Source: Rhizobiaceae bacterium (GTDB taxonomy: Bacteria; Pseudomonadota; Alphaproteobacteria; Rhizobiales; Rhizobiaceae). From it: a stretch of DNA of 41,083 nucleotides. The position numbers and the translations under genes were made by a program. The notes under the pieces were generated by a model, which had not been told where the DNA came from, made no database searches, and saw only the letters and a list, made by a program, of their open reading frames with translations. Within the stretch, counting starts at the first letter, position 1, and every line of letters starts with the position of its first letter. Positions 2,322 to 41,083 of this stretch are shown here, piece by piece. The stretch spans positions 325,193 through 366,275 of the forward strand of contig JARGOF010000002.1 of NCBI GenBank assembly GCA_029212415.1, in the 5' to 3' direction.

Positions 2322-3625
2322 TTACTGCCCTTGCCGGTTTCTTCTTCGTCATGTTGATGGTCTTCGTTCGCGTGCCGATCGCCATTGCGATGGGTGTGGT
2401 GGGCTTCGTCGGTTTCGCTCTGCTGCGCGACTGGATGCCGTCGCTGGCGCTGGTCGGCCTGGTTGCGCGCACAACGGTGGAATCCTACGAACTGTCGGTC
2501 GTGCCGCTGTTTATCCTGATGGGGAATTTCGTCAGCCGCGCTGGGATCTCGGATGATCTCTATACCGCCTCCTATGCTTTTGTCGGCCACCGCAAAGGCG
2601 GTTTGGCGATGGCGACGATTGTGGCTTGCGGCGGGTTCAGTGCGGTCTGTGGTTCCAGTCTGGCAACGGCTGCGACCATGGCGCGGGTCGCTGCGCCGCC
2701 GATGAAACGCTACGGCTATGCCGATACGCTGGCCGCCGGCTCCATCGCCGCTGGCGGGACGCTGGGCATATTGATACCGCCTTCCGTGATTCTGGTGCTT
2801 TACGGGATCATGACACAAACGGACATCCGCGCACTCTTCATGGCCGGTATGATCCCAGGTCTGCTGGGTGTCGCATTGTATCTGCTGGCAATCCGCTGGG
2901 TCGTCTGGCGCAACCCCAAAGCAGGCCCGGCCGGCGAGCGTCTGCCGATCGGCAAGAAGCTTGCCGCTTTGCGCGGCGTCTGGCCGATGATCCTGCTTTT
3001 CGTCATCGTTATCGGCGGCATATATGTGGGAATATTCACCCCGACCGAATCCGCCGGGATCGGTGCCTTCGGTGCCTTGATCTTTGCCGTGGTGCGCCGG
3101 CGATTGGACCTGCGTGGTTTTGTCAACGTCGTCGTGGATACCGCTGTGACAACGGCTTCACTGTTCATGGTGCTCATCGGCGCGCTGATCTTCGCCAATT
3201 TCGTCAACGGCACAGGAATGCCAACGGCACTGAAGGAGTGGGTTCAGCAGGGCGACATGTCGCCCATGTTGGTTCTTTTTCTGATTGTGCTTGTCTATCT
3301 GGTTTTGGGCTGCGTGCTGGAAAGCATGTCGATGCTTTTGCTGACAATCCCTGTATTCAGCGGCCTGGTTGCCTCGCTCGATTTTGGGCTTGGACCGCAG
3401 GAAACGCTCATCTGGTTCGGGATAATCGTTGTCGTGGTAACAGAAATCAGCCTGATTACGCCGCCCATTGGAATGAATGTGTTCACCCTGTCGGCCATGC
3501 TGCCCGAAATATCGACCCGCGATATATTCCGGGGGGTGACGCCCTTCTGGTGCGCCGACATTGTTCGATTGGCACTGTTGATTGCGATACCCGCCCTGTC
3601 CCTGATCGTGCCGTCTTTGTTGTAG
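2318..3625 (+). CDS. TRAP transporter large permease (DctM family)
   Basis: A 435-aa integral membrane protein with about twelve hydrophobic segments, the normal length for DctM, the subunit that drives sodium-coupled solute import. Recognisable family features are the N-terminal FVRVPIAIAMG segment, the glycine-rich GGFSAVCGSSLATAATMA region and the repeated loop GGTLGILIPPSVILVLYG, which is highly conserved in DctM proteins. A second such loop, ISLITPPIGMNVF, is near the C terminus. The start overlaps dctQ by ATGA. The TRAP operon seems to end here, because the sequence changes character in the following 370 bp. Confidence 0.92.
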   Translation: MITALAGFFFVMLMVFVRVPIAIAMGVVGFVGFALLRDWMPSLALVGLVARTTVESYELSVVPLFILMGNFVSRAGISDDLYTASYAFVGHRKGGLAMATIVACGGFSAVCGSSLATAATMARVAAPPMKRYGYADTLAAGSIAAGGTLGILIPPSVILVLYGIMTQTDIRALFMAGMIPGLLGVALYLLAIRWVVWRNPKAGPAGERLPIGKKLAALRGVWPMILLFVIVIGGIYVGIFTPTESAGIGAFGALIFAVVRRRLDLRGFVNVVVDTAVTTASLFMVLIGALIFANFVNGTGMPTALKEWVQQGDMSPMLVLFLIVLVYLVLGCVLESMSMLLLTIPVFSGLVASLDFGLGPQETLIWFGIIVVVVTEISLITPPIGMNVFTLSAMLPEISTRDIFRGVTPFWCADIVRLALLIAIPALSLIVPSLL

Positions 3626-3671
3626 GGGGTGGCTGGCCACAGGAATTGAAGCTTCTTCACGGGGAGGTTTC

Positions 3672-3782
3672 ATGCATGCAAATTACGGTGTCCTTGCAGA
3701 TCAGCTGTGGTTTTCAAGGAAACCTGAACGCCTTGGTGAACCGACCGATCATGGCTCGGCAGGTATGCCTATGCAAAATTGA
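3672..3782 (+). CDS. Possible 36-aa remnant ORF with strong RBS, otherwise empty gap
   Basis: The stretch 3626-3997 holds no full gene. The only coding-like item is an ATG preceded at optimal distance by GGGGAGG, 46 bp after dctM. It opens a 36-residue frame (starting MHANYGVLADQLWF) that ends in TGA. The strong ribosome-binding site in operon position suggests the 5' end of a further TRAP-operon gene, cut off where the lower-GC accessory patch begins. I do not recognise the peptide. The rest of the gap shows no convincing structure apart from a weak match to the tRNA-Thr T-arm at about 3887-3906. Confidence 0.25.
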   Translation: MHANYGVLADQLWFSRKPERLGEPTDHGSAGMPMQN

Positions 3783-3997
3783 TTTCCGGATACTTAAACC
3801 ATGCATTGTTGTGGATTACGCGCACAGGCAGTCCATGGGGGGTGAGAGAACGTTTCGACGCGTGAAATTCGATGTTCAAATGCATCCGTGAGTGGAACAC
3901 GCGGGACGACTTATACCGTGCGTCCAATGGCCGTTTGCTATCGCTGTAGAAGTTTAGCCGCCAAACTATCCTAGCGCTGATGTTGCCTCAATGACGA

Positions 3998-4582
3998 TTA
4001 GTGATTTTTCGAAGCGCGCTCCTGGATTTCTTGTTGGGTATCGATCGCCACCCACATGTTTTGTGTCAGCGAATATTCGATGTAATGTGAACCTCCAAAC
4101 CCTTTAACTTCGGAGAGCATGTCGTTCAGCGCGCCGTTTCCGGTCTTTGTGTCCTCCACCAGTAGTTCATGAAGATGATCAAGGATTAATGCGTAGTGTT
4201 CATGGCTTACCCCTTCGGGAAAAATGCACTTTACGGACCGCTCTTGATGATCTCGGATTTGAATGGAAAAAATTATGCTGCGTCTGGCTTCTCGCGCTTC
4301 GGGCTTGGGTCCAAAGAGCCGTTCAATCAGTTTGAGAATTCCCGATTTGAGAGTGATGTAGCTGTCTTTTCCCGCTTCAATCAAAAAACCTTCAAAATAG
4401 GGCTTGGCAAGATATGCAACGACGATAGTCGAAACTGCCCATTCAAAAGCTGCATAAACCCCGATTGGTCGCTCGCGTGATTGGACTCTCAAACCGCTTT
4501 TCACCAGTTCCGAAACAAGTTCATTGATCGCTTCCTCAGGAACATCGGTCTGATACCAAATTCCAATGTCAAAATCTTGCAT
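3998..4582 (-). CDS. Hypothetical protein, 194 aa
   Basis: I do not recognise this family. The protein begins MQDFDIGIWYQTDVPEE and has a compact N-terminal domain of about 40 residues. A moderately hydrophobic stretch (around residues 42-62, with FEWAVSTIVVAYLAKPYFEG) could be a membrane-associated helix. The C-terminal half is charged and includes HYALILDHLHELLVED. Codon use is AT-richer than in the flanking operons. It lies 39 bp downstream of parE in the same orientation, so it may be co-transcribed with the toxin-antitoxin pair. It is probably accessory cargo of the patch between the TRAP operon and tRNA-Thr. Confidence 0.6.
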   Translation of the reverse strand: MQDFDIGIWYQTDVPEEAINELVSELVKSGLRVQSRERPIGVYAAFEWAVSTIVVAYLAKPYFEGFLIEAGKDSYITLKSGILKLIERLFGPKPEAREARRSIIFSIQIRDHQERSVKCIFPEGVSHEHYALILDHLHELLVEDTKTGNGALNDMLSEVKGFGGSHYIEYSLTQNMWVAIDTQQEIQERASKNH

Positions 4583-12842: not shown

Positions 12843-13727
12843 TCAATCGCCGACGAAACCCGGGCCCTTGCCCAGTATTTTTTTGTCGATCTCACCGATG
12901 GCGTCAATATCCTTGCCCTCATAGGGCAGGTTGTGCAGCATGTGCCGTATGAGGTTCAGGCGCGCGCGGCGTTTGTCATTGGCTCTGATAACGGCCCAGG
13001 GTGCGTGGTCCGTGTGGGTGTGCTCCAGCATCAGGTCCCGCTTTTTTGTATAATCGTCCCATTTGTTGAGGCTTGCCATATCCATTGGCGAGAGTTTCCA
13101 TGACTTCAGCTGGCTGTGCCGGCGGTCATGAAATCGTTTCAACTGCATTTCGCGGCCGATATTGAGCCAGAATTTGAACAGATGAATGCCCTCGCGAACC
13201 GGCATACGCTCGAAAAGCGGCGTGTCCTGAAGAAAGCTCTCATGCTCTTGCGGTGTGCAAAAGCCCATGACCGGTTCAACACCGGCGCGGTTGTACCAGG
13301 AACGATCAAACATCACCATTTCACCGGCGGTCGGAAAATGGTCGATGTAGCGCTGATAATACCATTGCCCCTGTTCCTTGTCGGTCGGCTTTGGCAGGGC
13401 CACAATGCGTGCCGTGCGCGGGTTCATGAAGGCGCGTGTTGCTCCGATGGAGCCACCCTTGCCGGCGGCGTCGCGTCCTTCAAAAACAGCGATCACCCGT
13501 TCGCCGCTGGTCTGCAGCCAGGATTGCACCTTGACCAGTTCGATTTGCAGCGCCTCCAGTTGCTCCTCATAGATCCCCCGTTTGAGCTTCTTGTCATAGG
13601 GGTAATCGTCGGAGCCGAACGCCTTGTCCTCAATCCAGTCGGGCAGGTCGGGATTATCAATATCGAACAGGCGTTTTTCGCCATTGATCTTCAGTTCAAC
13701 GGATCTGTCCGACTTTTTCTTCGACAT
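12843..13727 (-). CDS. ppk2: Polyphosphate kinase 2
   Basis: PPK2 enzymes transfer phosphate between polyphosphate and nucleoside diphosphates (or monophosphates). With start ATG 13727 the protein is 294 aa, typical of one-domain class I PPK2. The Walker A motif is [13 protein letters not shown] (about residues 82-94), the Walker B region is [19 protein letters not shown] (from about 139), and the lid segment is [20 protein letters not shown]. Neighbouring conserved stretches [12 protein letters not shown] and QWYYQRYI are also present. An in-frame ATG at 13745 is possible. The gene lies next to the phosphate regulon but on the opposite strand; no Pho box was seen before it. Confidence 0.94.
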
Positions 13728-19554: not shown

Positions 19555-20373
19555 ATGAACATGATGTCGGAAGCAGCAGTAGAAGCAGCGGTGGGAGCAA
19601 CAGCCGCCACGCAGCCACCGATCAAGATGCAGGGCCGTCTGGTCAATGTGTCCTATGGAGACAATCAGGCGCTTTTTGATGTGGATCTGGATGTCCGCCT
19701 GCATCAGGTCACAGCGCTGATCGGACCGTCAGGCTGTGGCAAGTCGACCTTCCTGCGTTGCCTCAACCGCATGAATGACACGATTGACGGCTGCCGCGTC
19801 AAGGGCAGCATCACGCTGGATGGCGCTGATATCTATGACCCCTCCATTGATGTGGTGGAACTGCGCGCAAATGTCGGCATGGTCTTTCAAAAACCCAACC
19901 CATTCCCCAAGACCATCTATGAAAATGTTGCCTATGGCCCGCGCATTCACGGACTGGCCACCGGCAAGGCCGAGATGGACGAAATTGTCGAAACGAGCCT
20001 GCGCAAGGCAGGCCTGTTCGAAGAGGTCAAGGATCGTCTGCAAAGCGCAGGAACGGGGCTTTCCGGCGGTCAGCAGCAGCGCCTTTGCATCGCACGGGCG
20101 ATCGCCGTCAGCCCTGAGGTGATCCTGATGGATGAACCCTGTTCGGCGCTGGATCCCATCGCCACCGCAAAGGTCGAGGAACTGATCGACGAATTGCGGG
20201 TCAATTACACCATTGTCATCGTCACCCATTCCATGCAGCAGGCGGCCCGTGTTTCGCAGCGCACAGCCATGTTCCATCTGGGCCGGCTGGTGGAAGAAGG
20301 CGCCACCGACAAGATGTTCACCAATCCGGATGACCAGCGCACCCAGGATTACATTACCGGCCGCTACGGCTGA
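19555..20373 (+). CDS. pstB: Phosphate ABC transporter ATP-binding protein PstB
   Basis: Cytoplasmic ATPase of the phosphate importer, 272 aa. The Walker A is GPSGCGKST (residues 57-65), the ABC signature is [16 protein letters not shown], the Walker B is [13 protein letters not shown] and the switch histidine lies in [14 protein letters not shown]. The family markers [18 protein letters not shown] and [19 protein letters not shown] are specific to PstB. A second ATG at 19564 is possible. The first 25 residues are alanine-rich and variable. Confidence 0.96.
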
Positions 20374-31053: not shown

Positions 31054-31256
31054 GCCTCGTCAATCATCTGGCGGCTTTCCGCAAAGAGGCCGGCCTGACC
31101 CAGGCCCAACTGGCCGAGGCGGCCGGCGTGTCCCGCAAGACCATCAACACAATCGAAAACCGGATATTTGTTCCCTCAACCGTTCTGGCCCTGAAAGTGG
31201 CGCAAGTCCTCAATGTGTCGGTGCATGATCTGTTCGAACTGGAAGAAGACCAATGA
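31050..31256 (+). CDS. XRE family transcriptional regulator, 68 aa
   Basis: A minimal Cro/CI-type helix-turn-helix protein of YozG-like size. Residues 5-60 carry NHLAAFRKEAGLTQAQLAEAAGVSRKTINTIENR with a typical HTH and the VPSTVLALKVAQVLNVSVHDLFELEED tail shared by many short XRE regulators. It overlaps the preceding membrane protein and following hydrolase genes by four bases each (ATGA), so all three are one coupled operon. It is expected to be an autorepressor acting on the GTAAC-N6-GTTAC repeats. Confidence 0.92.
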   Translation: MSLVNHLAAFRKEAGLTQAQLAEAAGVSRKTINTIENRIFVPSTVLALKVAQVLNVSVHDLFELEEDQ

Positions 31257-32230
31257 AAAAAATCCTCCTGCCCATCATCCTGACACCCGTCATTTTTCTG
31301 CTCATTGCCGGCGGACTGATCCTGTCGCAATCGCCGCAGCCATTGCCATCCGATCGCGAGGGGCTGGACTTTTCCGGCATCCTGGCAGGCGAAGCCACTG
31401 CGGTGCGTGAACCCACAGATGTCCCCATGCGGGACGGCACGGTCATGCCTGCGCGGCTCTATGGAGAGCCGGACAATGGGCCGCTGCTTGTGCTGATTCA
31501 CGGGTCCGGCTGGCACGGCATGCAATTTGACGGCTTGGCCCGTGCCCTGTCCGGCGATGCCTTTGTCGTTGTACCGGACCTGCGCGGCCATGGCGCAAAG
31601 CCTGAACGGCGCGGCGATGTGGATCATATCGGCCAATATGAAGAAGACCTGGCGGATCTGATCGACAATCTGCGCCAGGATGACCAGAAGGTCGTTGTTG
31701 CCGGTCATTCCTCCGGCGGCGGCCTTGTCGTGCGCATGGCGGGCGGCGCCTATGGTGATCGCATGGACAAGGCGATCCTGCTGGCGCCCTTCCTCAAATA
31801 CAACGCTCCCACCATGCGCCCCGATGCCGGTGGCTGGACGCAGGCCCTGACGCGCCGCATCATCGGCCTTACCATGCTCAATATGGTCGGCATAACAGCC
31901 TTCAACGACCTGCCGGTCATTCAACTCGCCATGCCCAGGGCCGTGCTGGATGGCCCCCTGGGTAATACCGCAACCACCACCTATACCTACCGCCTGAACA
32001 GCGGCTTTGCACCCCGCGAAGACTACCTCAAAGACGCCGCCGCCCTGCCACCCTTCCTGCTCATCGCCGGAAGCGACGACGAGGCATTTGTCGCCGAGGC
32101 CTATGAGCCGCTGCTGTCAGATGTGAACACGCGTGGCACCTACGCGCTGATCGATGGCGTCGGGCATCTGGATATTGTGGACAATGCCGAGACGGTTGGG
32201 TTGATCAGGGCGTTTTTGGGTGGGGCTTGA
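31253..32230 (+). CDS. Alpha/beta hydrolase, membrane-anchored; its 3' end is the repeated sequence of this region
   Basis: A 325-aa hydrolase with an N-terminal hydrophobic anchor or signal (residues 4-25). Catalytic elements: oxyanion region LIHGSGWHG, nucleophile elbow GHSSGGG (Ser153), acid in AGSDDEAF and His305 in GVGHLDIVDNAE. The last roughly 30 codons plus downstream sequence recur at 36.05, 38.56 and 40.85 kb, always on the plus strand. It is the third gene in an operon with an XRE regulator. Substrate unknown; lysophospholipase-like or esterase activity is possible. Confidence 0.88.
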   Translation: MKKILLPIILTPVIFLLIAGGLILSQSPQPLPSDREGLDFSGILAGEATAVREPTDVPMRDGTVMPARLYGEPDNGPLLVLIHGSGWHGMQFDGLARALSGDAFVVVPDLRGHGAKPERRGDVDHIGQYEEDLADLIDNLRQDDQKVVVAGHSSGGGLVVRMAGGAYGDRMDKAILLAPFLKYNAPTMRPDAGGWTQALTRRIIGLTMLNMVGITAFNDLPVIQLAMPRAVLDGPLGNTATTTYTYRLNSGFAPREDYLKDAAALPPFLLIAGSDDEAFVAEAYEPLLSDVNTRGTYALIDGVGHLDIVDNAETVGLIRAFLGGA

Positions 32231-32320
32231 GAGGGAAGGGGTGGGATGGTGACGGATGATTTGCCGCGATTGGAAGGAGGGGGAGGAGTTGGAATGAAAC
32301 GAATTTCGTGTTTCCAATAA
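32138..32320 (+). repeat. Hydrolase-tail repeat, copy 0 (within and after the intact gene)
   Basis: This copy contains the true C-terminal codons of the hydrolase (from about YALIDGVGHLDIVD to the stop at 32230) and about 90 bp downstream that ends near GGAATGAAACGAATTTCG. The same series of landmarks occurs in the other copies. The remaining gap to 32448 shows no gene. Confidence 0.8.
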
Positions 32321-32448
32321 ATCGGCCTAATAGTTAGCACTGGATAACAAAAAATTCTTGTTGTAGGGATCGGAGAATACCCAGAATTGCAGTTATTTTA
32401 AAATTGGGATGCGCATTTGGAGCGTGGAATATTGCCGCCGATGCGCAC

Positions 32449-33669
32449 TCAGGTCTGCTTTCCCCTTACATCTTCGATGAAATCTGCAAGAGACCAAAGC
32501 CAACCCTGCTGAGAGTCAGTGTAGCTAGACTGAATTGGCTGAGGCACAACAAGCTGGAGGCTAGATGCTTCCATCTGTTGCGTCTGCGGCTCTGAAATTC
32601 GTGGCTCTAGTGTCAAAAGATGTTTTCGACTAATTTTTTCCGCTTCTGCCAAGACCTGCCGCCAGCGATCCTTGCAACTGGATTTTGCCCCCAGCATGGT
32701 CAACCGAACATTGCCTTCCGGTGGAGCGGTTTGATAGGTGTCGAGGTTAGGGAAAAGAAAATCAGGCTTATGATTGTGTTCGGTGACAGCCCCTCGGATG
32801 TGCTGAACGCCATGCGCCCTGAAAACCGCTTCCAAATGGTGTTCTAGCGAATAACCCCGGCGCGATTTCCGGCGATTTTGAACGCTCAACGAATAACTGA
32901 TGAAACCATCAATATCGATACCGTCCTCATTTACAAAGCCTGCCTCGATCCGTGATGAAACAACCCGACGCTCTAGACGCCTGAACAGTGCCTCCTCGTG
33001 GTCTAGCCATGCGATCAGTGCGGAGTCCGGGTCATCCTCAGCTCTAACTTCGGGTATGGTGAGGCGGGCAAGATCTGAGAACTCGGCGGTCTTCGGAAAC
33101 ATGGTGCCGAACTTGTCTATGATGGTGTCCAGCTTGTCAGCTTCCGGTTCTTCAAACTCGACACCGATCTCATCCAAGATGAACCGTGCCGCGAAGTCCA
33201 GCGTCGGTTCTTCATCCGAAAATTCACGCGAGACGAAAGACTGTCCCTCTGGACGCCGGTCGAAAAGCCAAAAGAGTTGCTGTTCACTGGTTGACCCTTG
33301 AGGGGCAACGATGAACCATCTCACACCGGTCGTGTCTTTGGCTAGAAATAGACTGTCGCCCGGTCTCATGGCCTCGGTTACAGGATTTGTAGGATAATAT
33401 AACCTCCACTCCGCCGAGCGCGCGTCATCTTCTAGGCGGCTGTCATAGTGTGTCGACCAGCTTTCCTCGGTAAAACCGTCTTGGTCACCTCCTAACCAGA
33501 CATATCTTGTTGTAGCTTTTTCCTGATGTACTTGTCCGAGAAACCCTTCACGCATCTCCTTGGTGGTTCCTATCTCATGCTGATTGGAACGCTCAGGATC
33601 TGCATCGACCGCAGACAAGCGTTTAACGCCAACTCCTTCGAAATAATCAGACAGTTGCCCCCGATTCAT
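32449..33669 (-). CDS. EcoRII-like type II restriction endonuclease
   Basis: A 406-aa enzyme with the two-domain plan of EcoRII. The N-terminal part (to about 170) resembles the B3-like DNA effector-binding domain. The C-terminal catalytic domain (about 260-406) has RRKSRRGYSLEHHLEAVFRAHGV, KPDFLFPN, LGAKSSCKDRWRQVLAEA, KHLLTLEPRISEPQTQQM and LQLVVPQPI. These are the EcoRII-C hallmarks, including the PD and K of its PD-(D/E)XK site. EcoRII cuts before the first C of CCWGG and needs two sites; the same specificity here is inferred. It overlaps vsr by 23 bp, so dcm-vsr-endonuclease is one operon. Confidence 0.92.
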   Translation of the reverse strand: MNRGQLSDYFEGVGVKRLSAVDADPERSNQHEIGTTKEMREGFLGQVHQEKATTRYVWLGGDQDGFTEESWSTHYDSRLEDDARSAEWRLYYPTNPVTEAMRPGDSLFLAKDTTGVRWFIVAPQGSTSEQQLFWLFDRRPEGQSFVSREFSDEEPTLDFAARFILDEIGVEFEEPEADKLDTIIDKFGTMFPKTAEFSDLARLTIPEVRAEDDPDSALIAWLDHEEALFRRLERRVVSSRIEAGFVNEDGIDIDGFISYSLSVQNRRKSRRGYSLEHHLEAVFRAHGVQHIRGAVTEHNHKPDFLFPNLDTYQTAPPEGNVRLTMLGAKSSCKDRWRQVLAEAEKISRKHLLTLEPRISEPQTQQMEASSLQLVVPQPIQSSYTDSQQGWLWSLADFIEDVRGKQT

Positions 33670-34120
33670 TTCCGCTTACCTCCAGCATTTTTATATCTGA
33701 TTTCAACCATATGGCGCATTGATTGGCAATATGCTCAACGGAAATGCGAGTTTTACCCTTCAGGGCACATTCCCAGACAGTACAGACACGCCAGCCACTA
33801 TCAGCAAGGGCCAAATACTGCTCATGGTCCCGCTGGATGTTCCTCCCGATCTTCTCCCGCCAAAAAATCTCTTGGCTCTTCGGCCAGCGGAACAGATGGC
33901 AATCATGGCCGTGCCAGAAACACCCATGAACGAATATAACGGCTTTGCGCCTGTTGAATACAAGATCAGGTTTTCCTGGAAGGTCTTTGCGGTGCAGCCG
34001 AAATCGGAATCCGCGCCGGTGTAGCGCGGATCGGATTACCAATTCAGGCTTGGTATTCTTACCTTTGATGCCAGCCATCATACGGCTACGAACTGCTGGC
34101 GTCACGCGGTCGGGGCACAT
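33647..34120 (-). CDS. vsr: Very short patch repair endonuclease Vsr
   Basis: Nicks next to T:G mismatches that arise when 5-methylcytosine deaminates, preserving Dcm sites. The 157-aa protein keeps all key residues of E. coli Vsr, shifted by one: Glu26, Asp52 (in GKPDLVF), His65 and His70 (VIFVHGCFWHGHDC). The zinc site residues Cys67, His72, Cys74 and Cys118 are also present, as is the MMAGIKGKNTKPE segment. It starts three bases after the dcm stop. Its presence between methyltransferase and endonuclease implies cytosine-C5 methylation by this system. Confidence 0.95.
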   Translation of the reverse strand: MCPDRVTPAVRSRMMAGIKGKNTKPELVIRSALHRRGFRFRLHRKDLPGKPDLVFNRRKAVIFVHGCFWHGHDCHLFRWPKSQEIFWREKIGRNIQRDHEQYLALADSGWRVCTVWECALKGKTRISVEHIANQCAIWLKSDIKMLEVSGNESGATV

Positions 34121-34123
34121 AAT

Positions 34124-35383
34124 TCAGGTTGAAACACGCGGTTCTGGCAATGTTAGCTTGGGCTTCGAAATAGCGGGCCGGGCGCGTCCTTCACGCTCAA
34201 GCACAAATGTTATGTGCGGCTCCATCAGATTGGCCACAGCCTGTACTGCAGGCACGACAACAGCGTTGCCGAACTGCCGGTATGCCTGTGTGTCCGATAC
34301 CGGGATGCAGAATTTTGTTTCTCCAGGTTCTTCGAACCCCATTAGTCTCGCACACTCGCGCGGCGTCAAACGGCGTGGCCGGTTGCCCTTTTGCTCAATC
34401 AGGATTTCTGAGCCGTCCTTGTAGTAGCGTGCCGAAAGGGTCCGGGCCACGTCATTCGGTCCAAAGAGAGAAAATCCAAAACCATTCCCCGCATTCCTGT
34501 GCTTTTCCTTGTAGCCCTGAAGGTATTTCCACATGTGTTCTGTCAGGGTGTATTTCGGGTCCACATCGCTGTCGAGTATTTGGCCAAGAGTCGGGCCGTC
34601 TCCTTGCGGAACAGCCAGATTATCGAAATTAAAATTGACCTGGTCGCGGAACCCGACGATAAAAATACGTTCGCGCTTCTGTGGAACCCAAGGTGTCGAG
34701 CTCACCACTCGGTAGCTGACATTATATCCCAGTTCCTTCTGAAGAACGTGCATTATCGTGGCAAAGGTCTTGCCGCCGTCATGGCGTTGCAGATTTTTTA
34801 CATTTTCCAGTAGAAAGGCAGGTGGACGATGGTGGGCGATGATCTTTGCCAAATCGTAGAACAGTGTTCCCTGCGTATCACAAAGAAATCCGTGGGGGCG
34901 GCCAAGGGCATTTTTCTTGCTGACTCCTGCAATAGAAAATGGTTGGCATGGAAAGCCGGCCAGCAGGACATCATGTGCTGGAACCTTATCGGGTGAATCG
35001 GCGAATGGTCGCACGTCCTCTGCGAAGACATGATCACTTTCTGCAGTTTCAGGGAAGTTTGCTTTATAGGTTTGGCGGCTGAAACGGTCCCATTCTGCCG
35101 TAAACACGCATCGGCCGCCAATTGTCTCGAAAGGGCGGCGCAGGCCACCGATGCCGGCAAACAGGTCGATGAACCTGAAGTCTTCACGCCTGCCTTCGGT
35201 GCAGCGCGAATCGGCAGCTTCGCGCAGCTTGGTCAGCCTGAGTTGGTCGATCTTTCTGCCTTGATTGTTGATGTTGCGGCGTATCGTGCGGTCACTCACG
35301 TTCAGCAACTCCGCTGCGGTCTCGATACTAAGGCCGGCACGTTCCATCAATTCAGAGAATTCTGTACGTGGATGCGGCTTCAT
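34124..35383 (-). CDS. DNA (cytosine-5) methyltransferase, Dcm/M.EcoRII-like, with N-terminal HTH
   Basis: Methylates the cytosine of the restriction site and protects the host. In 419 aa it has the ten-motif plan: SAM-binding [16 protein letters not shown] (motif I, about 71-86), catalytic Cys146 in [16 protein letters not shown] (ENV, 192-199), the QKRER motif (235-239), and [15 protein letters not shown] plus [10 protein letters not shown] near the end. The first 55 residues form an HTH ([24 protein letters not shown]) that probably represses the operon, as is known for M.EcoRII/M.SsoII-type enzymes. The dyad at 35402-35416 is a candidate target. Confidence 0.95.
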
Positions 35384-35401
35384 GCGTCGCCCCTGTTTCT
35401 G

Positions 35402-35416
35402 TGTCAGTCATTGACA
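35402..35416. promoter_or_regulatory. Candidate autoregulatory dyad upstream of the methyltransferase gene
   Basis: TGTCA-GTCAT-TGACA inverted repeat, 18 bp upstream of the methyltransferase start, followed by a third TGTCA at 35420-35424. The position and the HTH at the methyltransferase N terminus make it a likely operator. From here to 36188 no intact gene is found; the interval holds a repeat, described separately. Confidence 0.5.
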
Positions 35417-35594
35417 ATGTGTCATAATCTTTCCAAGCGCGTTTGGAAACCCAGTTTTTCCTTTTTGTTCTTATTTTGTTCCAGCGCTCATTGAAATATC
35501 AAAATTCCATTGCGGAGCAAGAAATTTTAGAAAACATGACAATGGATACTTATTGGAGCCTTTTAAACCAGCCCTCACAACCAATGCCCCCCAC

Positions 35595-36125
35595 ACGCTC
35601 ACTCCCAAGCAACATACTTGCAACAGGCCGGAGCAATGGCGGAGAGGCGACGGCGAAGCATGCCGCGCGGCTTGATCGGGCATATCCACCGATCATCCTG
35701 AATAAAGCGGCAGAGTTAAACGCCCGTGGGAGAGGATTGGGCAGCTCAGCACACACGGACGCATTCTCCAGCGTGAGGGATCGCCAGAAATCGGGCTCCC
35801 CGAACGAAAGAATTTTGAACCGTGATGAAGCGTGTTTTGCCGCTTGCTGCATTTTTGATGGGATCGGTGTTTTGCTGTTTGCCGGTGGCGCCAACGGCCT
35901 GATCCTGCCGACCAGAGGCCAAGCCGAAGGGGTTACGGCCGCCGCGCTTGGTCTCTTCGGAACCGGTTGGGCGATCGGCAATGTGGCCGGTTGTCTGTGA
36001 ACCCTGTCCCTTGTAGCGCGTGTCGGCCATATCAGGGCCTTTGGGCGCCTACGTGCTCATCGATGGCGTCGGGCATTTGGATATTGTGGACAACGCCGAG
36101 ACGATTGGGCTGTTCATATGTTTGT
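35595..36125 (+). repeat. Long composite repeat, copy A: 102-bp block, MFS 5' fragment, hydrolase tail copy 1
   Basis: Homologous to copy B at 40375-41035. By eye, the first 102 bp (35595-35696) differ from 40375-40476 at six positions. A weaker similarity then continues with GGGAGAGGATTGGGCAG and an ACGCATTCTCC landmark. Next comes the start of an MFS transporter gene, and from about 36050 the hydrolase tail, ending at about 36125. Copy A lacks a roughly 27-bp segment present in B and has about 16 extra bp early in the MFS fragment. Confidence 0.85.
35824..36116 (+). pseudogene. MFS transporter N-terminal fragment fused to hydrolase C-terminal fragment (copy A)
   Basis: The first part encodes the start of a major facilitator transporter (LLFAGGANGLILPTRGQAEG, ALGLFGTGWAIGNVAGCL), including the end of helix 1 and helix 2. 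A 16-bp insertion after the ATG and a stop after VAGCL break the frame. A one-base shift further on restores RVGHIRAFG, the usual MFS continuation. At about 36050 the sequence switches to YVLIDGVGHLDIVDNAETIGL, the hydrolase C terminus. Neither half can give a functional protein. Confidence 0.75.
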
Positions 36126-36141
36126 GCTGCGGTTTAGAGCC

Positions 36142-36170
36142 CAAAGCGGGCGCATGCGACGCCCGCTTTG
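36142..36170 (-). terminator. Strong hairpin after the SnoaL-like gene
   Basis: Perfect 11-bp stem (CAAAGCGGGCG/CGCCCGCTTTG) with a 7-nt loop, 18 bp beyond the stop of the minus-strand gene at 36189. It is a good terminator candidate for the sulfotransferase-SnoaL operon, although without a T-run on that strand. Confidence 0.7.
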
Positions 36171-36188
36171 CCCTTGCGGATTCGAGAG

Positions 36189-36620
36189 TCATGCAGCTTC
36201 GGTCAGCCGTTCAAGGATCTCCAGCATGCTTGGAGACAGATCCGTATGATGGTGCGCCAGTTTCCACACCCCGCCCTGCCGCTGATAGACGTTGGTTACA
36301 CGGTGTTCGATCCTGGCTTCATGGCCGGCAAGGGTCAAAGTTCCGACTTCCATGCCCGTTTCCACGGCCATGTCCGCTCCGACATTGATCGATTGGCCCT
36401 CCAGCCGGATTTCACCGCCACCGGCAATTTTGGCGACCTGATTGAACGAGGCCAGAATGGTATCTGAACCTATGTCGCGGCCGCCGATGGGGTGCTGCGC
36501 GGTGACTCCGTCGCCCTTGATCCACACGTCCTGCATCGCGGTATCATCGCCCTGCGCCATCTTGTTGAGCGCATCGTAGAACGTGGCCGAGGCGCGGCGA
36601 ACGTCATTGAGGTTGGTCAT
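36189..36620 (-). CDS. SnoaL/NTF2-like domain protein (DUF4440 type)
   Basis: A 143-aa protein of the cone-shaped NTF2/ketosteroid-isomerase fold. Matching features are the N-terminal helix RRASATFYDALNKMAQGD, the short DVWIKGDGVTAQHPIGG segment typical of the DUF4440/SgcJ-like group, strands MAVETGMEVGTLTL and ARIEHRVTNVYQRQGGVWKLAHHHTDLS with the WKLAHHH strand that often closes this fold. The function is unknown; members are ligand-binding or small enzymes. It lies 87 bp after the sulfotransferase-like gene, in the same orientation. Confidence 0.85.
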   Translation of the reverse strand: MTNLNDVRRASATFYDALNKMAQGDDTAMQDVWIKGDGVTAQHPIGGRDIGSDTILASFNQVAKIAGGGEIRLEGQSINVGADMAVETGMEVGTLTLAGHEARIEHRVTNVYQRQGGVWKLAHHHTDLSPSMLEILERLTEAA

Positions 36621-36707
36621 GGTTTGGTTCCTTCTGGCTGTTGGCAGACCGGGGGTGTGCCCGGCCCATGCCGAACGCCCCGTTGCCGATAAATTGAGTG
36701 GGTTGGC

Positions 36708-37343
36708 TTAGACAGCAGCCTCTTGCGTTCCGGATTTGACGGAGGAGAAAAAATCTGCCCGCGCATTGGTCTTGGGGAAGGGCGCATCCGGCAGGTCAAC
36801 GCCAAGAAAGCGGCAGAGCGGTTCCCATCCGTCACGGACATTGAACACCAAGACCTTGCCTTGCGCCTCCAGTTCCCGCGCGGCCGCTTCATTGGCACGG
36901 TAGGCCTTCAGAATGCCGTCCCTATCCGTGCGGCCGCCCAAAGCCTTGCCGATGATGACCTTCTCGATCATCTCAAACCAGGGAGCCGCGTTTTGCGGCC
37001 AGGCCTCCTTGTCGAGGATCAGCGGCAGGATGGTCTGGGAAAAACTGCCATACCAATCCTCGGCCTCCCGATGTGAAAGAATGACCCTGGCGTTCGGTGT
37101 GGCCGTAAGCACGTCTTGCCAGTAGGCCGAAACGGGGAAGTCCACAGCTGATCGAAAGCCCGAGAAGATCGCGTCAAAGTCGGGGCGCCCCTCTGTCACT
37201 GCGCACCAGGCTTTGATCTGCCTGGGGTCACTGACGACCTCGGACATGTGGTGGCATGGGCCGAAGCCCAAATGCTCCAACGCCGCCTTCAGTGAATAGG
37301 TCCCGGTTCGACCGAAGCCCGCGCCAATGATTTCGAGTGCCAT
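36708..37343 (-). CDS. Sulfotransferase-like P-loop protein
   Basis: A 211-aa protein of the sulfotransferase superfamily (the group often annotated as NAD-dependent or P-loop sulfotransferase). The PAPS-binding strand-loop-helix GAGFGRTGTYSLKAALEHLGF is at residues 7-27. A second conserved part, ARVILSHREAEDWYGSF, matches the 3'-phosphate-binding strand with R/S in the family. The end WEPLCRFLGVDLPDAPFPKTN is also typical. The acceptor is unknown. It is divergent from a LysR regulator and leads an operon with the SnoaL-like gene. Confidence 0.85.
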   Translation of the reverse strand: MALEIIGAGFGRTGTYSLKAALEHLGFGPCHHMSEVVSDPRQIKAWCAVTEGRPDFDAIFSGFRSAVDFPVSAYWQDVLTATPNARVILSHREAEDWYGSFSQTILPLILDKEAWPQNAAPWFEMIEKVIIGKALGGRTDRDGILKAYRANEAAARELEAQGKVLVFNVRDGWEPLCRFLGVDLPDAPFPKTNARADFFSSVKSGTQEAAV

Positions 37344-37361
37344 TGCCTCTAACCTCCTTTA

Positions 37362-37402
37362 TGAATAGGATAGATCAACATTGCTTGATCTGCACCTATT
37401 CA
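37362..37402. promoter_or_regulatory. Nested palindromes between the sulfotransferase and lysR genes
   Basis: Outer arms TGAATAGG (37362-37369) and CCTATTCA (37395-37402) enclose inner arms AGATCAA (37372-37378) and TTGATCT (37385-37391); the centres differ by only half a base. LysR-type regulators bind such dyads in divergent gaps, often controlling both directions. Confidence 0.65.
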
Positions 37403-37456
37403 GGGTAGGATGAACCATTATCCCCGCAAAAGTCGAACGAAACGATTTCATAGACC

Positions 37457-38425
37457 ATGAATGAAATTGATTTACACCGCATTGACCTGAATTTATTGGT
37501 TGTTTTTGAGTCCCTGATGGAGACCCGAAGCGTTACGGTGACGGCAGACAGGATCGGGCGCACACAGTCGGCGGTCAGCCACGCGCTTGCTCGGCTAAGG
37601 GAGCAGCTCGACGATCCCGTGCTGGTCCGGGTCGGCGGCAAGATGCACCCCAGCCCGTTCGCCGAGGCGATCATCGAGGATGTCAGACCCATCCTGCGCA
37701 GCATCCGCCGCGTGATCGCGCCGCGCAACCTGTTCAACCCTGGCCAAAGCGACCGGGTGTTCCGTATCGCCATGCCGACGCTGACCAAAGTCATTGCAGA
37801 GGTATCAGCGCGGGTCGAGGCCGAAGCGCCCAGGGTAAAGATCGAGTGGCTTCCAGCGCATCAGGATGTATATCCGGCACTCAGCGAAGGATTGATCGAC
37901 CTTGCCCATCTGGGCGGACAGCCGCGATTGCCGGATGGTCTGGATCATCAGATCATGGAGCCGTTTTCCTGGGTGACTTTCGCGCGGCAGGGTCACCCGG
38001 CAGCCACGGACTGGGGGATCGATGCCTGGCGCAAATACCCGCATGTGATGGTCAATGTCACCCGCTCGCAACAAAACCCCTTTCCCGTTACGCCCGATTC
38101 CGATGCCGGGGCGCGGCGGGTCAGCGCGATGATCGGGGATTCGGCCGGGGTTGCCCCGCTTCTTGCCAATTCGGATTTTCTGGCCACCTTCCCGGCGGTT
38201 CTGCTGGCCTGGGACATGGAGGCCCACGGCCTCATCGCGATGAGGCCGCCCGTCGACCTGGGCTCGGTTCTTGTTCGCTTTTTCTGGAGCTCGCGCCTTG
38301 CCAACGACGCCGGTGGTATCTGGATCAGATCGATCGTCATTGAAGCCTACCGGCGCCTGCAGGCTGAGGCAGAGGCGAAGCTCGCCATGCCAAAACTTGT
38401 CCAGCCCTCCAGGCAACCGGCTTGA
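37457..38425 (+). CDS. LysR family transcriptional regulator
   Basis: A 322-aa LysR protein of the NodD-like branch. The HTH is in the first 65 residues: IDLHRIDLNLLVVFESLMETRSVTVTADRIGRTQSAVSHALARLREQLDDPVLVR. The PBP2-type ligand domain follows from about 95 (FRIAMPTLTKVIAEVSARVE). The C terminus is slightly long and Ala/Glu-rich. Divergent from the sulfotransferase gene with nested palindromes between them, it is the likely activator of that operon. Confidence 0.93.
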   Translation: MNEIDLHRIDLNLLVVFESLMETRSVTVTADRIGRTQSAVSHALARLREQLDDPVLVRVGGKMHPSPFAEAIIEDVRPILRSIRRVIAPRNLFNPGQSDRVFRIAMPTLTKVIAEVSARVEAEAPRVKIEWLPAHQDVYPALSEGLIDLAHLGGQPRLPDGLDHQIMEPFSWVTFARQGHPAATDWGIDAWRKYPHVMVNVTRSQQNPFPVTPDSDAGARRVSAMIGDSAGVAPLLANSDFLATFPAVLLAWDMEAHGLIAMRPPVDLGSVLVRFFWSSRLANDAGGIWIRSIVIEAYRRLQAEAEAKLAMPKLVQPSRQPA

Positions 38426-38556
38426 TTGGACCACTCATTCCACGGTCGCTTTGTCCAGCTAACCGACGATTTACCGGCCTGAACGCCGCAGGATGCATCA
38501 AGGAATGGTCTGGTGACGCTGCGTCGCAGGGCTGAACGAACCGGCCAGGCGCGGCA

Positions 38557-38775
38557 GTGAATGCGCGGAGCGCCTGCGCGCTGAACGACGGCGACGGGCA
38601 TCTGGATATTGCACAGTACGCCGAGACGATTGGGCCGATCAGGGCGTTTTGAGAGGGGGCTTGAGTTGAAGGGTGAGATGGTCCTGCGCCATTTTCGCGG
38701 TTCGCAAGAGTGGAAAGGGTTGGAATGAAACGAATTTCGTCGTTTTTGCACGGCAGGCTACGACTGGATTGGGCG
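38557..38775 (+). repeat. Hydrolase-tail repeat, copy 2
   Basis: Starting near GTGAATGCGCGG, the plus frame reads VNARSACALNDGDGHLDIAQYAETIGPIRAF and then a stop, a decayed version of the hydrolase C terminus. It is followed by the shared downstream landmarks CAAGAGTGGAAAGGGT, GGAATGAAACGAATTTCG and GGCTACGACTGGATT. Unlike copies A and B it has no MFS part. The stretch 38426-38999 otherwise has no gene I can support; its last 60 bp is the promoter of the next module. Confidence 0.8.
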
Positions 38776-38961
38776 GGGAGCGGAAGTTCGCGTATGCAGC
38801 GCCGCAGACAAAGCCGGCACCGAAGCGGTCGATCAGCAAACCTGAGCGCCAGCCAAACGGTGGCAGCTTGCTTGATCTGACCTGTGATGTCGATAAGGTG
38901 GCGGTGGGTCTCTTTATTGGTCAAGTGGACGAACGTCTTGATCTGACCACTTAAATTTTAC

Positions 38962-38977
38962 CTTGTCGATTGACAAG
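38962..38977 (+). promoter_or_regulatory. Operator candidate before the HicA-like module
   Basis: Perfect dyad CTTGTC-GATT-GACAAG, 22 bp before the first gene. A TTGACA at 38970-38975 overlaps its right arm. Autoregulation by the HTH protein encoded by the second gene is plausible. The exact promoter is unclear, because a -10-like TATATC at 38993 would place the transcript start inside the gene. Confidence 0.55.
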
Positions 38978-38999
38978 TTAATTAAGGAAGTCTATATCC

Positions 39000-39278
39000 T
39001 TGTCACGTGATAGGCATTCGAAGAAAGAGGTCGAGGAAGCGCTGCAAGCTGCCGAAGCCCTTGGCTGGAAGATCATTCGGCGGAAGGGGAAGGGGCACGC
39101 ATGGGGGCTCTTGAGATGTCCACAACCAACTGATGAGTGCCGCTGCGGTCAGTATTGTCAGATGTCGATCAACTCGACACCTGAAAACCCTGGATCGCAT
39201 GCCGCTAAGTTGATTGGCAAAGTGCATGGATGCACCAACCCGCTGAAGAAGGATGACGAAAATGGTGGAACAGTTTGA
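39000..39278 (+). CDS. Small HicA-like protein, candidate toxin, 92 aa
   Basis: The N-terminal helix SKKEVEEALQAAEALGW, followed by strands KIIRRKGKGHAWGLLRCP and a QMSINSTPEN strand and a closing helix PGSHAAKLIGKV, gives an order resembling HicA mRNA-interferase toxins. His34 (GKGHAWG) is at the place of the HicA catalytic His. A Cys cluster (CP...ECRCGQYCQ) is unusual for HicA and could bind metal. Start is TTG 39000 behind AAGGAAG, as no ATG is available early. Overlap with the next gene supports a two-gene module. The toxin role is inference. Confidence 0.6.
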   Translation: MSRDRHSKKEVEEALQAAEALGWKIIRRKGKGHAWGLLRCPQPTDECRCGQYCQMSINSTPENPGSHAAKLIGKVHGCTNPLKKDDENGGTV

Positions 39279-39795
39279 GTTTGAGCTCGTCTATGCGCTT
39301 CCGGTCGGTGAGCACGATGCTTTCGAGCTTTCTGATGCTGTATTTGAAGCTGGTTACCATGATGCGATCATCGGTTCTGGTGATCCGCGCCTGATGGCCA
39401 TTGAACTGGAGGTAGCTGGGGAGGACGCTGAGACCGTTATCCTGAATGCGGCTCGGTCGATCTTGAAGAACCTCCCTGAGGGCACGGAATTGCGCGAAGT
39501 TCGGCCAGATTTGGTGAGTTTGGCGGACGTTGCTGAGCGATTGGAAGTGCGGCGTCAGGCCCTTCAGCAACGGACTATGCCTCCTGCTGTCGCCGGCGGG
39601 CTCTATCGTATTGCCGAATTGGCCGAGGTGATTGCCGCCTTCGCTCAGCCCGAGCCCGGTGGCCGCCGCGCGCGTATGAACTTCGAGCGTGCTAACGGCT
39701 GGTTGCGCGCAGGGAAGGCAGCGACTGCTCTCAATGCCAAAATAGCGTTGAAACAGCTAAACACAGTTTCTCTTGAAGAGAAACAACGAGCTTGA
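39262..39795 (+). CDS. HTH-containing partner of the HicA-like protein, candidate antitoxin
   Basis: From ATG 39262 (AAGGA at good distance; ATG 39253 is too near it) the protein has 177 aa. The N-terminal part EQFEFELVYALPVGEHDAFELSDAVFEAG and the ELEVAGEDAETVILNAARSILKNLPEG section form an alpha/beta domain. The second half carries an HTH-like region LVSLADVAERLEVRRQALQQRTMPP followed by LYRIAELAEVIAAF. It overlaps the first gene by 17 bp. An antitoxin that neutralises the small protein and represses via the upstream dyad would fit, but I do not recognise a named family. Confidence 0.6.
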   Translation: MVEQFEFELVYALPVGEHDAFELSDAVFEAGYHDAIIGSGDPRLMAIELEVAGEDAETVILNAARSILKNLPEGTELREVRPDLVSLADVAERLEVRRQALQQRTMPPAVAGGLYRIAELAEVIAAFAQPEPGGRRARMNFERANGWLRAGKAATALNAKIALKQLNTVSLEEKQRA

Positions 39796-40374
39796 TCTCC
39801 CCCGTCGGTTCCTTGGGCAAAGTTTCCGACTGATTCAGGCTGCTGCCTGGACCTGCTGAGACGCCGAGACTTAGGAGATGGTGAACTTCTGAGCAAGGAT
39901 GAGCATCCTGCCCGAGTAAGAGATGATCGCCATTCAGGAAATCAACGCTGCGTTCCAGCGCATGAAGCGCCCGATGTGCGCAATCGCTTCTTTGTCGACA
40001 TGGCATCGCTCGAAGCTGCCTGATGGTTCAAGCACGAGGCGGCGTGCTTTGCGCGCCTCGCGTAGCATTCGCAGCCTTGCCTGCGGCGATCAACCGTTTC
40101 TGTTGCGGATTGCTTAAATGACTGCTTTGGCGATTGCCTAATCGCAGCTGTACTCTGAGCTGGGCTGCAGCTTGGGGCCGGAAGCGACACCGTTCAATGA
40201 TGTCGTACTGCGTTGCAACAAAATGAAGATCCTTGCGCAAACCTGACGCTACGCATCTTTCTTATATTGTACTAGCAAGATCGCGTCACGTGAGTTGAGA
40301 AGGAAAACACAGCGGGCATTGAGGCAAAATTTTGCGCCTTTGACACCCCGAGCAGCCATTGCCGTACTGTCCTC

Positions 40375-41035
40375 ACGTTCACTCCCAAGCAACATACTTG
40401 CAACAGGCCGGAGCAATGGCGGAGAGGCGACAGCGAAGCATGCCGCGTGGCTGAATTGGGCATATCCACCGATCATGCTTATCCATTCAGATGACCATAT
40501 CATCCAGAATGAAGCGGCAGAGTTCAACGCACATGGGAGAGGATTGGGCAGCGCAGCACACAGGGACGCATTCTCCATAGGGGAGGAACGTCGGGCCTCA
40601 GGTCATACTGACGAAAGAATTTTGAACCGAGATGAAGAATGTTCTGCCGCTTGCTGCACTTTTGCTGTTTGCCGGTGGCGTCAATAGCCTGATCCTGCCG
40701 ATCAGAGGCGAAGCCGAAGGGTTTACGACCGCCTCGCTTGGTCTCTTGGGAACCGGATTGGCGATCGGCAATGTGGCCGGTTGTCTGCGAACCCCGTCCC
40801 TGTGGCGCGTGTCTGCCATATCAGGGCCTTTAGGCGCATACGCGATGGTCGATGGCGTCGGGCTTCTAGATTTTGTCGACAGCGGCGAGACGGTCGGGTT
40901 GATCAGGGCGTTTTTGGATGGGGCCTGAGTTAAAAATGGGGTGATGTGCCGTTTTCGCGATTGGCAAGAGTGGAAAGGGTCGGAATGAGTCGAATTTCGA
41001 CGTTTTCTGCACTGCAGGCTACGACTGGATTGTCT
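40375..41035 (+). repeat. Long composite repeat, copy B: 102-bp block, MFS 5' fragment, hydrolase tail copy 3
   Basis: Same layout as copy A at 35595, with a roughly 27-bp extra segment after the 102-bp block and a longer right end that goes past GGAATGAGTCGAATTTCG to GGCTACGACTGGATT near 41030. The 39796-40374 stretch before it shows no gene or repeat that I can identify, and the last 50 bp of the window shows nothing. Confidence 0.85.
40632..40928 (+). pseudogene. MFS transporter N-terminal fragment fused to hydrolase C-terminal fragment (copy B)
   Basis: An open 98-codon frame from ATG to TGA. The first 58 residues are an MFS N terminus (MKNVLPLAALLLFAGGVNS, ILPIRGEAEGFTTASLGLLG, TGLAIGNVAGCL) with helices 1 and 2. 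Then a frame slip changes RVGHIRAFG into other residues, and the end, MVDGVGLLDFVDSGETVGLIRAF, is the hydrolase C terminus with its catalytic His replaced (GLL for GHL). The junction point corresponds to that in copy A. It might still be translated, but it cannot be a transporter or hydrolase. Confidence 0.75.
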
Positions 41036-41083
41036 AAGGTTTGTGGCTGCTGTCAGCGTGAGCTGCAGCGGCGACAAATCTGA

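What the first reader, a model, noticed from the sequence alone, without database searches (positions are those of the whole stretch)
32138..41035. Hydrolase 3'-end repeats separate three different accessory modules
The last codons of the hydrolase gene at 31253-32230 and flanking DNA occur four times in the same orientation (about 32.14, 36.05, 38.56, 40.85 kb). The intervals hold, in order, an EcoRII-Vsr-Dcm system, a LysR-sulfotransferase-SnoaL set and a HicA-like/HTH module. This is the pattern expected when an insertion at the 3' end of a gene restores the end of the gene and leaves the old end displaced, as happens with tRNA-targeted elements. Later copies are more decayed (copy 3 lost the catalytic His codon), consistent with the intact gene keeping the newest tail. 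No recombinase is seen in the array, so the mechanism is open: serial site-specific insertion, homologous exchange between scars, or duplication. The repeats could also let modules be swapped by recombination.
Basis: partly seen in the sequence, partly recalled or inferred. Interest (0 to 1): 0.8.

Follow-up and report, generated by a model that had tools for sequence, protein, structure and literature searches.

The report
Gene-fragment scars between accessory gene blocks
A bacterial chromosome carries a row of broken copies of two neighbouring genes' ends, with unrelated accessory genes (two of the three sets are defence or candidate defence genes) lodged between them; it looks like the debris of repeated duplication and insertion at a gene-turnover spot rather than a dedicated integration system.

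Summary
The four same-strand hydrolase (H) tails are real. Intact M is on contig C41, placed right of the array by synteny: relative G006 has H and M on one contig, same order and strand, with 10.6 kb of other genes between the conserved flanks and no H-tail copies. A third, older M-start remnant marks the right edge in both genomes. The fragments lack the third-position bias of intact genes, so they decay largely without protein constraint. The intact H tail matches G006 as well as the H body does. No recombinase was recognised among the proteins scanned, no conserved core was found, and no convincing tail copies follow H in 24 other loci. Modules: EcoRII-Vsr-Dcm; SnoaL-sulfotransferase-LysR; a PDC-M06A/B candidate defence pair. 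Best reading: head-to-tail joining of [H3'-spacer/module-M5'] segments at a microhomology, by tandem duplication or integration of a circularised fragment, then unequal exchange and decay. Tail-targeted integrase insertion is poorly supported. The window stops at a contig end beside an unassembled repeat, possibly an IS91-type element.

The parts
31253..32230 (+). Intact alpha/beta hydrolase gene H (325 aa)
   Evidence: Pfam Hydrolase_4 E 7e-23; 94% aa identity to the G006 orthologue
32135..32309 (+). Copy 1: native H tail plus 79-nt spacer, the reference for the repeats
   Evidence: Collinear with G006 up to 32309
32310..35557 (-). Module A: EcoRII-type restriction enzyme (32449-33669), Vsr (33647-34120), Dcm-type methylase (34124-35383)
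   Evidence: GC 51.1% against 57.1% in the left flank; endonuclease matched in 1 of 8 genus genomes, this one; the same three genes lie together in L131 and L132 of other genera at 47-68% aa
35558..36043 (+). M5' fragment of copy 2: upstream DNA and about 74 codons of the MFS gene, with frameshift and stop
   Evidence: 84-88% identity to intact M in C41 and G006; internal TGA and 1-nt deletion visible in the alignments
36044..36116 (+). Copy 2: H tail, 73 nt, joined directly to M5'
   Evidence: 89% identity to copy 1
36117..38556 (.). Module B: SnoaL-like (36189-36620 -), sulfotransferase (36708-37343 -), LysR regulator (37457-38425 +)
   Evidence: all three genes occur together in G268 at 64-83% aa identity, with no H or M match in the 11 kb held
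38557..38784 (+). Copy 3: H tail plus spacer, no M5' in front
   Evidence: 76.6% to copy 1 and 77.6% to G006
38785..40353 (+). Module C: PDC-M06A (39000-39278) and PDC-M06B (39253-39795) candidate defence pair, then gene debris
   Evidence: PADLOC E 3e-29 and 1.1e-21; pair also in G145 at 82-85% aa, the second gene cut by a contig end, and DNA matches across both genes in G152 and G158 at 67-68%
39862..40023 (+). Decayed 3' end of a zinc-type alcohol dehydrogenase gene
   Evidence: 79% and 78% DNA identity to G110 and G022; the G110 gene is ADH_N/ADH_zinc_N by Pfam and both frames end in matching residues; no other match in 8 genus genomes, own included
40371..40832 (+). M5' fragment of copy 4 (weaker match from about 40354), partly resembling the third M5' remnant in C41
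   Evidence: 77-78% identity to M; alignments
40833..41032 (+). Copy 4: H tail plus spacer; frame 40632-40928 is an open 98-codon M5'-H3' fusion with Leu in place of the H-tail His
41030..41083 (.). Contig end shared with contigs C12 and C24: outer end of a repeated element, possibly IS91-type
   Evidence: 100% over 53-55 nt. A 109-nt stretch with this end lies behind an IS91-family transposase gene in G005 (L056) but also behind an IS110-family one in G007 (L055), so the family is not settled

Best explanation
The array is a ladder of head-to-tail units of the form [H 3' end - spacer holding an accessory module - M 5' end] at a gene-turnover spot between two genes, H and the transporter M, that face the same way. 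Shown: two of the three displaced H tails are fused to the M start at one identical joint; H and M stand in this order in G006; a further M-start remnant marks the right edge in two genomes; and the fragments decay largely without protein constraint. Inferred: intact M follows the array in G000 (synteny across an assembly gap); an illegitimate join between M and H coding sequence at the microhomology GGCrCC produced the M5'/H3' joint, either as the new joint of a tandem duplication or as the ligation point of a circularised fragment that went in by a single RecA crossover at the H tail. Later unequal exchange between units, perhaps including DNA from other strains with other modules in the same spacer, multiplied the joint (copies 2 and 4 descend from one). 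Deletions then trimmed the units (copy 3 has no M5'). The modules ride in the spacers, which are neutral ground. No dedicated recombinase is needed.
For: H and M occur in the same order and strand on one G006 contig, flanking a variable interval; G000 is collinear on both sides (window to 32309 = L037rc 2611; C41 from 93 = L037rc 13214). The M5'/H3' joints at 36044 and 40833 share one join point and an extra base relative to M (read by eye from the sequences), and 27 columns group the two copies against both intact M genes, with one conflicting column each way, so one origin. Third M5' remnant at C41:156-300 / L037rc 13277-13420. Codon-position differences: intact M between genomes 14/5/64 for positions 1/2/3; copy 2 against M 11/4/10; H tails 5/1/2, 6/7/6 and 4/4/6; pooled fragments against pooled intact genes p=1e-5 (the fragments share ancestry, so the sites are not fully independent). 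Modules A and C and the G006 interval lie between H3' and M5' sequences. H body and tail equally close to G006. No integrase or transposase among the array proteins scanned. Similar processes are in print: serial displacement with a proposed homology-facilitated illegitimate mechanism (PMC5361080, passages); circularisation and single-crossover integration of linear DNA in E. coli (PMC3240628, abstract and outline).
Against: No two units share module content, as a fresh tandem duplication would give. Two of five modules break the H3'-module-M5' syntax: B lies between two H tails, and the LysR block of C41/G006 between two M starts. Copy 3 has no M5' and by eye seems to keep about 12 nt of H upstream of the joint, so it may have another origin. 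Copy 4 alone does not differ significantly from intact genes in codon-position pattern (p=0.08) and keeps an open fused frame. The microhomology is short (6 nt, one mismatch between parents). A rough clock puts the joint older than the split of the two genomes, yet G006 has no array, so G006 must have lost it or G000 imported it. Sites that separate G000 from G006 do not settle the order: for both M copies 13 like G000, 7 like G006, 4 neither; H tails 2:0, 8:6 and 6:9 for copies 2, 3 and 4. C27-C41 adjacency is inferred from synteny only.
Confidence: 0.6

Rival explanations
1. Serial site-specific insertion at the H 3' end: each element brings a replacement tail, displaces the old one, and the integrase was later lost.
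For: Displaced tails in one orientation behind an intact gene; the spacer just after the H stop is unusually divergent from G006 (14 of 79); part of the region is missing in the assembly gap and might have held an integrase.
Against: Two tails begin at an M coding joint, not at an element end; no conserved core, since the longest exact match of copy 1 with copies 2, 3 and 4 is 18, 22 and 22 nt and lies at different places; H tail not newer than H body; no integrase family in the proteins scanned; no convincing tail copies in 24 other H loci.
Confidence: 0.07
2. One-ended, rolling-circle transposition by an IS91-type element next to the array delivered the modules.
For: The contig ends at copy 4 with a 55-nt end resembling the stretch behind an IS91 transposase in G005.
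Against: The same end also lies behind an IS110-family transposase in G007, so the element may not be IS91; no IS91 sequence was found in the array (L056:1-1560 was among the subjects and gave no hit); the module borders inside the array are gene fragments of H and M; the element end does not recur at the other copies.
Confidence: 0.1
3. Insertion with long target duplication of a restriction-modification system: module A copied its target when it entered.
For: A restriction-modification set lies between direct repeats of the neighbouring gene's end (73 nt, 89%); the concept is described in PMC3031569 (passages; it cites Nobusato 2000, which I did not read).
Against: An M5' piece lies between module A and the right-hand repeat; modules B and C are not restriction-modification sets but sit in the same frame; no empty-target relative was found.
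Confidence: 0.12

Closest known systems
Sequential displacement arrays of T6SS effector-immunity modules in Vibrio cholerae (PMC5361080, passages read)
   Same: New modules enter at a gene end, older parts are shifted back in one orientation, no integrase known; the authors propose homology-facilitated illegitimate recombination.
   Different: There the displaced parts are older immunity genes (with effector 3' ends), which the authors think are of advantage; here they are decaying ends of two ordinary neighbours, and the modules are unrelated to them.
Insertion with long target duplication of restriction-modification systems (concept seen in PMC3031569 passages; original paper not read)
   Same: Restriction-modification genes between direct repeats of a chromosomal gene end.
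   Different: Here the repeats also contain the start of the gene on the other side, and non-restriction modules share the frame.
Tandem duplications with microhomology joints (general knowledge, recalled)
   Same: Joint of the right-hand gene's 5' part to the left-hand gene's 3' part, both parents present in order.
   Different: The repeated interval content is not shared between units.

Membership tests
Integrative element targeting a gene 3' end | Integrase or recombinase gene next to the repeat | tested here: not met
   None among the array proteins scanned with Pfam, NCBIfam, PADLOC and PHROGs. Two weak excisionase-like matches in small parts: NCBIfam 'excise' in the methylase (E 6e-5, below cut-off) and a PHROG excisionase/regulator in PDC-M06B (E 2e-4). 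The assembly gap after 41083 and short unscanned frames are untested
Integrative element targeting a gene 3' end | Identical attachment core in all repeats | tested here: not met
   Longest exact run of copy 1 with copies 2, 3 and 4 is 18, 22 and 22 nt at different places
Integrative element targeting a gene 3' end | Intact gene carries a replaced tail | tested here: inconclusive
   Tail 95.8% and body 95.0% to G006; spacer after the stop 82%
Tandem duplication of an H3'-M5' segment | New joint M5'/H3' with both parents intact in the order H...M on one strand | tested here: met
   order seen on one contig in G006, inferred across the C27/C41 gap in G000
Tandem duplication of an H3'-M5' segment | Repeated units share the interval content | tested here: not met
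   Units hold different modules
Restriction-modification insertion with long target duplication | Direct repeats of the target immediately flank the inserted genes | tested here: inconclusive
   H tail on both sides of module A, but about 490 nt of M5' lies between module and right repeat
IS91/ISCR-type mobilisation | Element or its end at each module border | tested here: not met
   End seen only at 41030-41083; no IS91 hit in the array
Integron cassette array | attC sites and IntI | not tested
   No attC search was run; repeats are protein-gene fragments

The most novel reading that the evidence does not exclude
The [H3'-module-M5'] unit is a recombinase-free cassette form: fragments carrying any module between these two gene ends circularise and enter by homologous single crossover at the H tail, so that two ordinary genes act as a shared dock through which a population exchanges defence and metabolic modules in series.
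Probability: 0.12. Interest if true: 0.55.

Novelty: new member of a known kind. Interest (0 to 1): 0.33.

Why it matters
It shows how accessory sets, here a restriction system and a candidate defence pair, can pile up at one spot with no integrase in sight, leaving readable joints that record order and mechanism. The shared M5'/H3' joint makes it testable whether gene-turnover spots grow by in-place duplication or by capture of circularised fragments. It is one locus in one draft assembly, so its reach is unproven.

Tried and rejected
Tail-replacement test by divergence along H: body and tail alike, spacer higher but within the range of other intergenic stretches; weak. Dating by sites that differ between G000 and G006: not decisive. 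Search for the joint region in 297 family genomes: 22 of 297 had a match at E<=0.001, G000 included; the other 21 were short matches (28-187 nt), mostly within the M-coding part of the query; one (G163, 43 nt, E 8.5e-4) spans the position of the joint and I take it as chance; G006 does not appear in that list and seems not to have been drawn. H relatives: 22 of 297 at E<=1e-70, G000 included; loci were held for 19 of the other 21. Module search: 24 of 297 at E<=1e-20, G000 included; the full length of module B only in G268; the PDC-M06 pair in G145, G152 and G158; many others match only the methylase/Vsr part. M relatives at 54-56% in G004 and G005: none of the other 21 proteins of this locus that I tried matched within the 19 kb held around them. 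G006 interval genes are not elsewhere in G000 except one 167-nt match at 71%. The tblastx scan was not used as evidence because the real control region gave many weak hits too. A possible MYG1 fragment at 40276-40347 overlaps other weak matches and was left open. Literature searches run: (one returned nothing); papers opened: PMC3031569 and PMC5361080 (passages), PMC3240628 (abstract and outline). No search was made for this locus by name, so I claim nothing about its being in print.

Full report
What is there. The window is the end of contig C27 (366,275 bases) of a genome of 5.84 Mb in 85 contigs. Of the 8 genomes searched in the genus, itself included, only G006 has an H orthologue (94% aa; the best in the other six is 37-40%). 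The G006 contig has the length and match of record JARGOX010000019.1, a metagenome bin named Rhizobiaceae bacterium. The H tail occurs four times on the same strand.

Layout. H - H3'(1) - module A - M5'/H3'(2) - module B - H3'(3) - module C - M5'/H3'(4) - contig end. On contig C41 follow a short M5' remnant (156-300), an isochorismatase-domain, a pirin and a LysR gene, and intact M (3243-4538). G006 has the same order on one contig: H and its spacer, 10.6 kb of SDR, AraC, molybdopterin, LysR and cupin genes, the same short M5' remnant, the same LysR block, and M. The link C27-C41 in G000 is inferred from this synteny. The last 53-55 nt of C27 are shared with C12 and C24, and the first 49-64 nt of C41 with C19, C39 and C6, as expected for a repeated element in the gap. 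A stretch with this end lies behind an IS91-family transposase gene in G005 but also behind an IS110-family one in G007, so the element's family is open.

The joint. In copies 2 and 4 the M sequence stops and the H sequence starts at the same point, around GGCrCC, present in both parents with one mismatch; by eye both copies carry one extra base there relative to M. Across the M5' block, 27 columns group copies 2 and 4 against both intact M genes, with one conflicting column each way and 76 columns set aside for gaps. So one joint was multiplied. In the H tail and spacer, copies 3 and 4 share 11 changes against native, with 20 in copy 3 alone, 13 in copy 4 alone and 2 where both differ otherwise; over the part that copy 2 has, copies 2 and 3 share 2 changes and all three share 2. 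Copy 3 has no M5' in front.

Decay. Intact M differs between the two genomes at 14, 5 and 64 sites for codon positions 1, 2 and 3; H at 11, 8 and 29. Copy 2 differs from M at 11, 4 and 10, copy 4 at 5, 3 and 10; H tails at 5/1/2, 6/7/6 and 4/4/6. Copy 2 against intact M gives p=0.001, H tails pooled p=0.02, copy 4 alone p=0.08, all pooled p=1e-5 (sites shared by descent are not independent). The fragments thus evolve mostly free of protein constraint, which speaks against their being recently imported from working genes. With the local intergenic divergence of 9.6% as a neutral scale, M to copy 2 (14.4%), M to copy 4 (16.0%) and copy 2 to copy 4 (13.0%) suggest that the joint is older than the split from G006. 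This assumes a clock and no transfer, and the site-sharing test does not confirm it.

H body 95.0%, H tail 95.8% and spacer 82% to G006. None of 24 other H loci has a convincing tail repeat; 22 of 24 gave no hit, and L099 and L101 gave hits of 19 nt or 8-9 residues. Downstream sequence was about 9.9 kb for 5 loci and 0.7-1.4 kb for 19; one of the 24 is the G006 locus itself. Array proteins scanned matched no integrase; two weak excisionase-like matches are told in the membership table. The array also holds the decayed 3' end of an alcohol dehydrogenase gene at 39862-40023, so scars are not confined to H.

Modules. A: EcoRII-C, Vsr and C5-methylase, lower in GC (51.1%), the endonuclease found in 1 of 8 genus genomes, this one; the same trio lies together in L131 and L132. 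B: found as a three-gene block in G268. C: PDC-M06A/B by PADLOC, also in G145 and, by DNA match, G152 and G158. All three sets thus exist as blocks elsewhere; in the L131, L132, G268 and G145 stretches held, no H or M match was seen.

Mechanism. The syntax H3' - module - M5' holds for modules A, C and the G006 interval; module B (between two H tails) and the LysR block (between two M starts) depart from it. It is what remains when segments running from H3' to M5' are joined head to tail. A tandem duplication gives this joint but would first repeat the same content; a fragment circularised by end joining and inserted by one crossover at the H tail gives it with a new module at once. Circularisation with single-crossover entry has been reported in E. 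coli (PMC3240628, abstract), and homology-facilitated illegitimate recombination was proposed for serial displacement in Vibrio (PMC5361080, passages). I cannot separate the two and give the shared core (illegitimate joint, then homologous multiplication, then decay) 0.6.

Noticed in passing
39000-39795: The small 'HicA-like/HTH' pair matches PADLOC candidate defence genes PDC-M06A and PDC-M06B, so two of the three modules are defence or candidate defence sets.
   Followed up: partly
39862-40023: Decayed 3' end of a zinc-type alcohol dehydrogenase; no other DNA match in this genome or its genus (8 genomes).
   Followed up: partly
40276-40347: 72-nt match (78%) to the end of the MYG1-family gene at C41:9235-9306, overlapping other weak matches; in L063 (Rhodobacterales) H and a MYG1-family gene are also near neighbours.
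   Followed up: partly
L037 (reverse strand) 13277-13420 and L049:156-300: Third, older M-start remnant shared by both genomes at the right edge of the variable interval; part of copy 4 (about 40580-40650) looks more like it than like M, suggesting exchange between remnants.
   Followed up: partly
20059-20157: About 100-nt inverted match (75%) to C41:6392-6490 in the right flank, also present in G006; the genes there were not examined.
   Followed up: no
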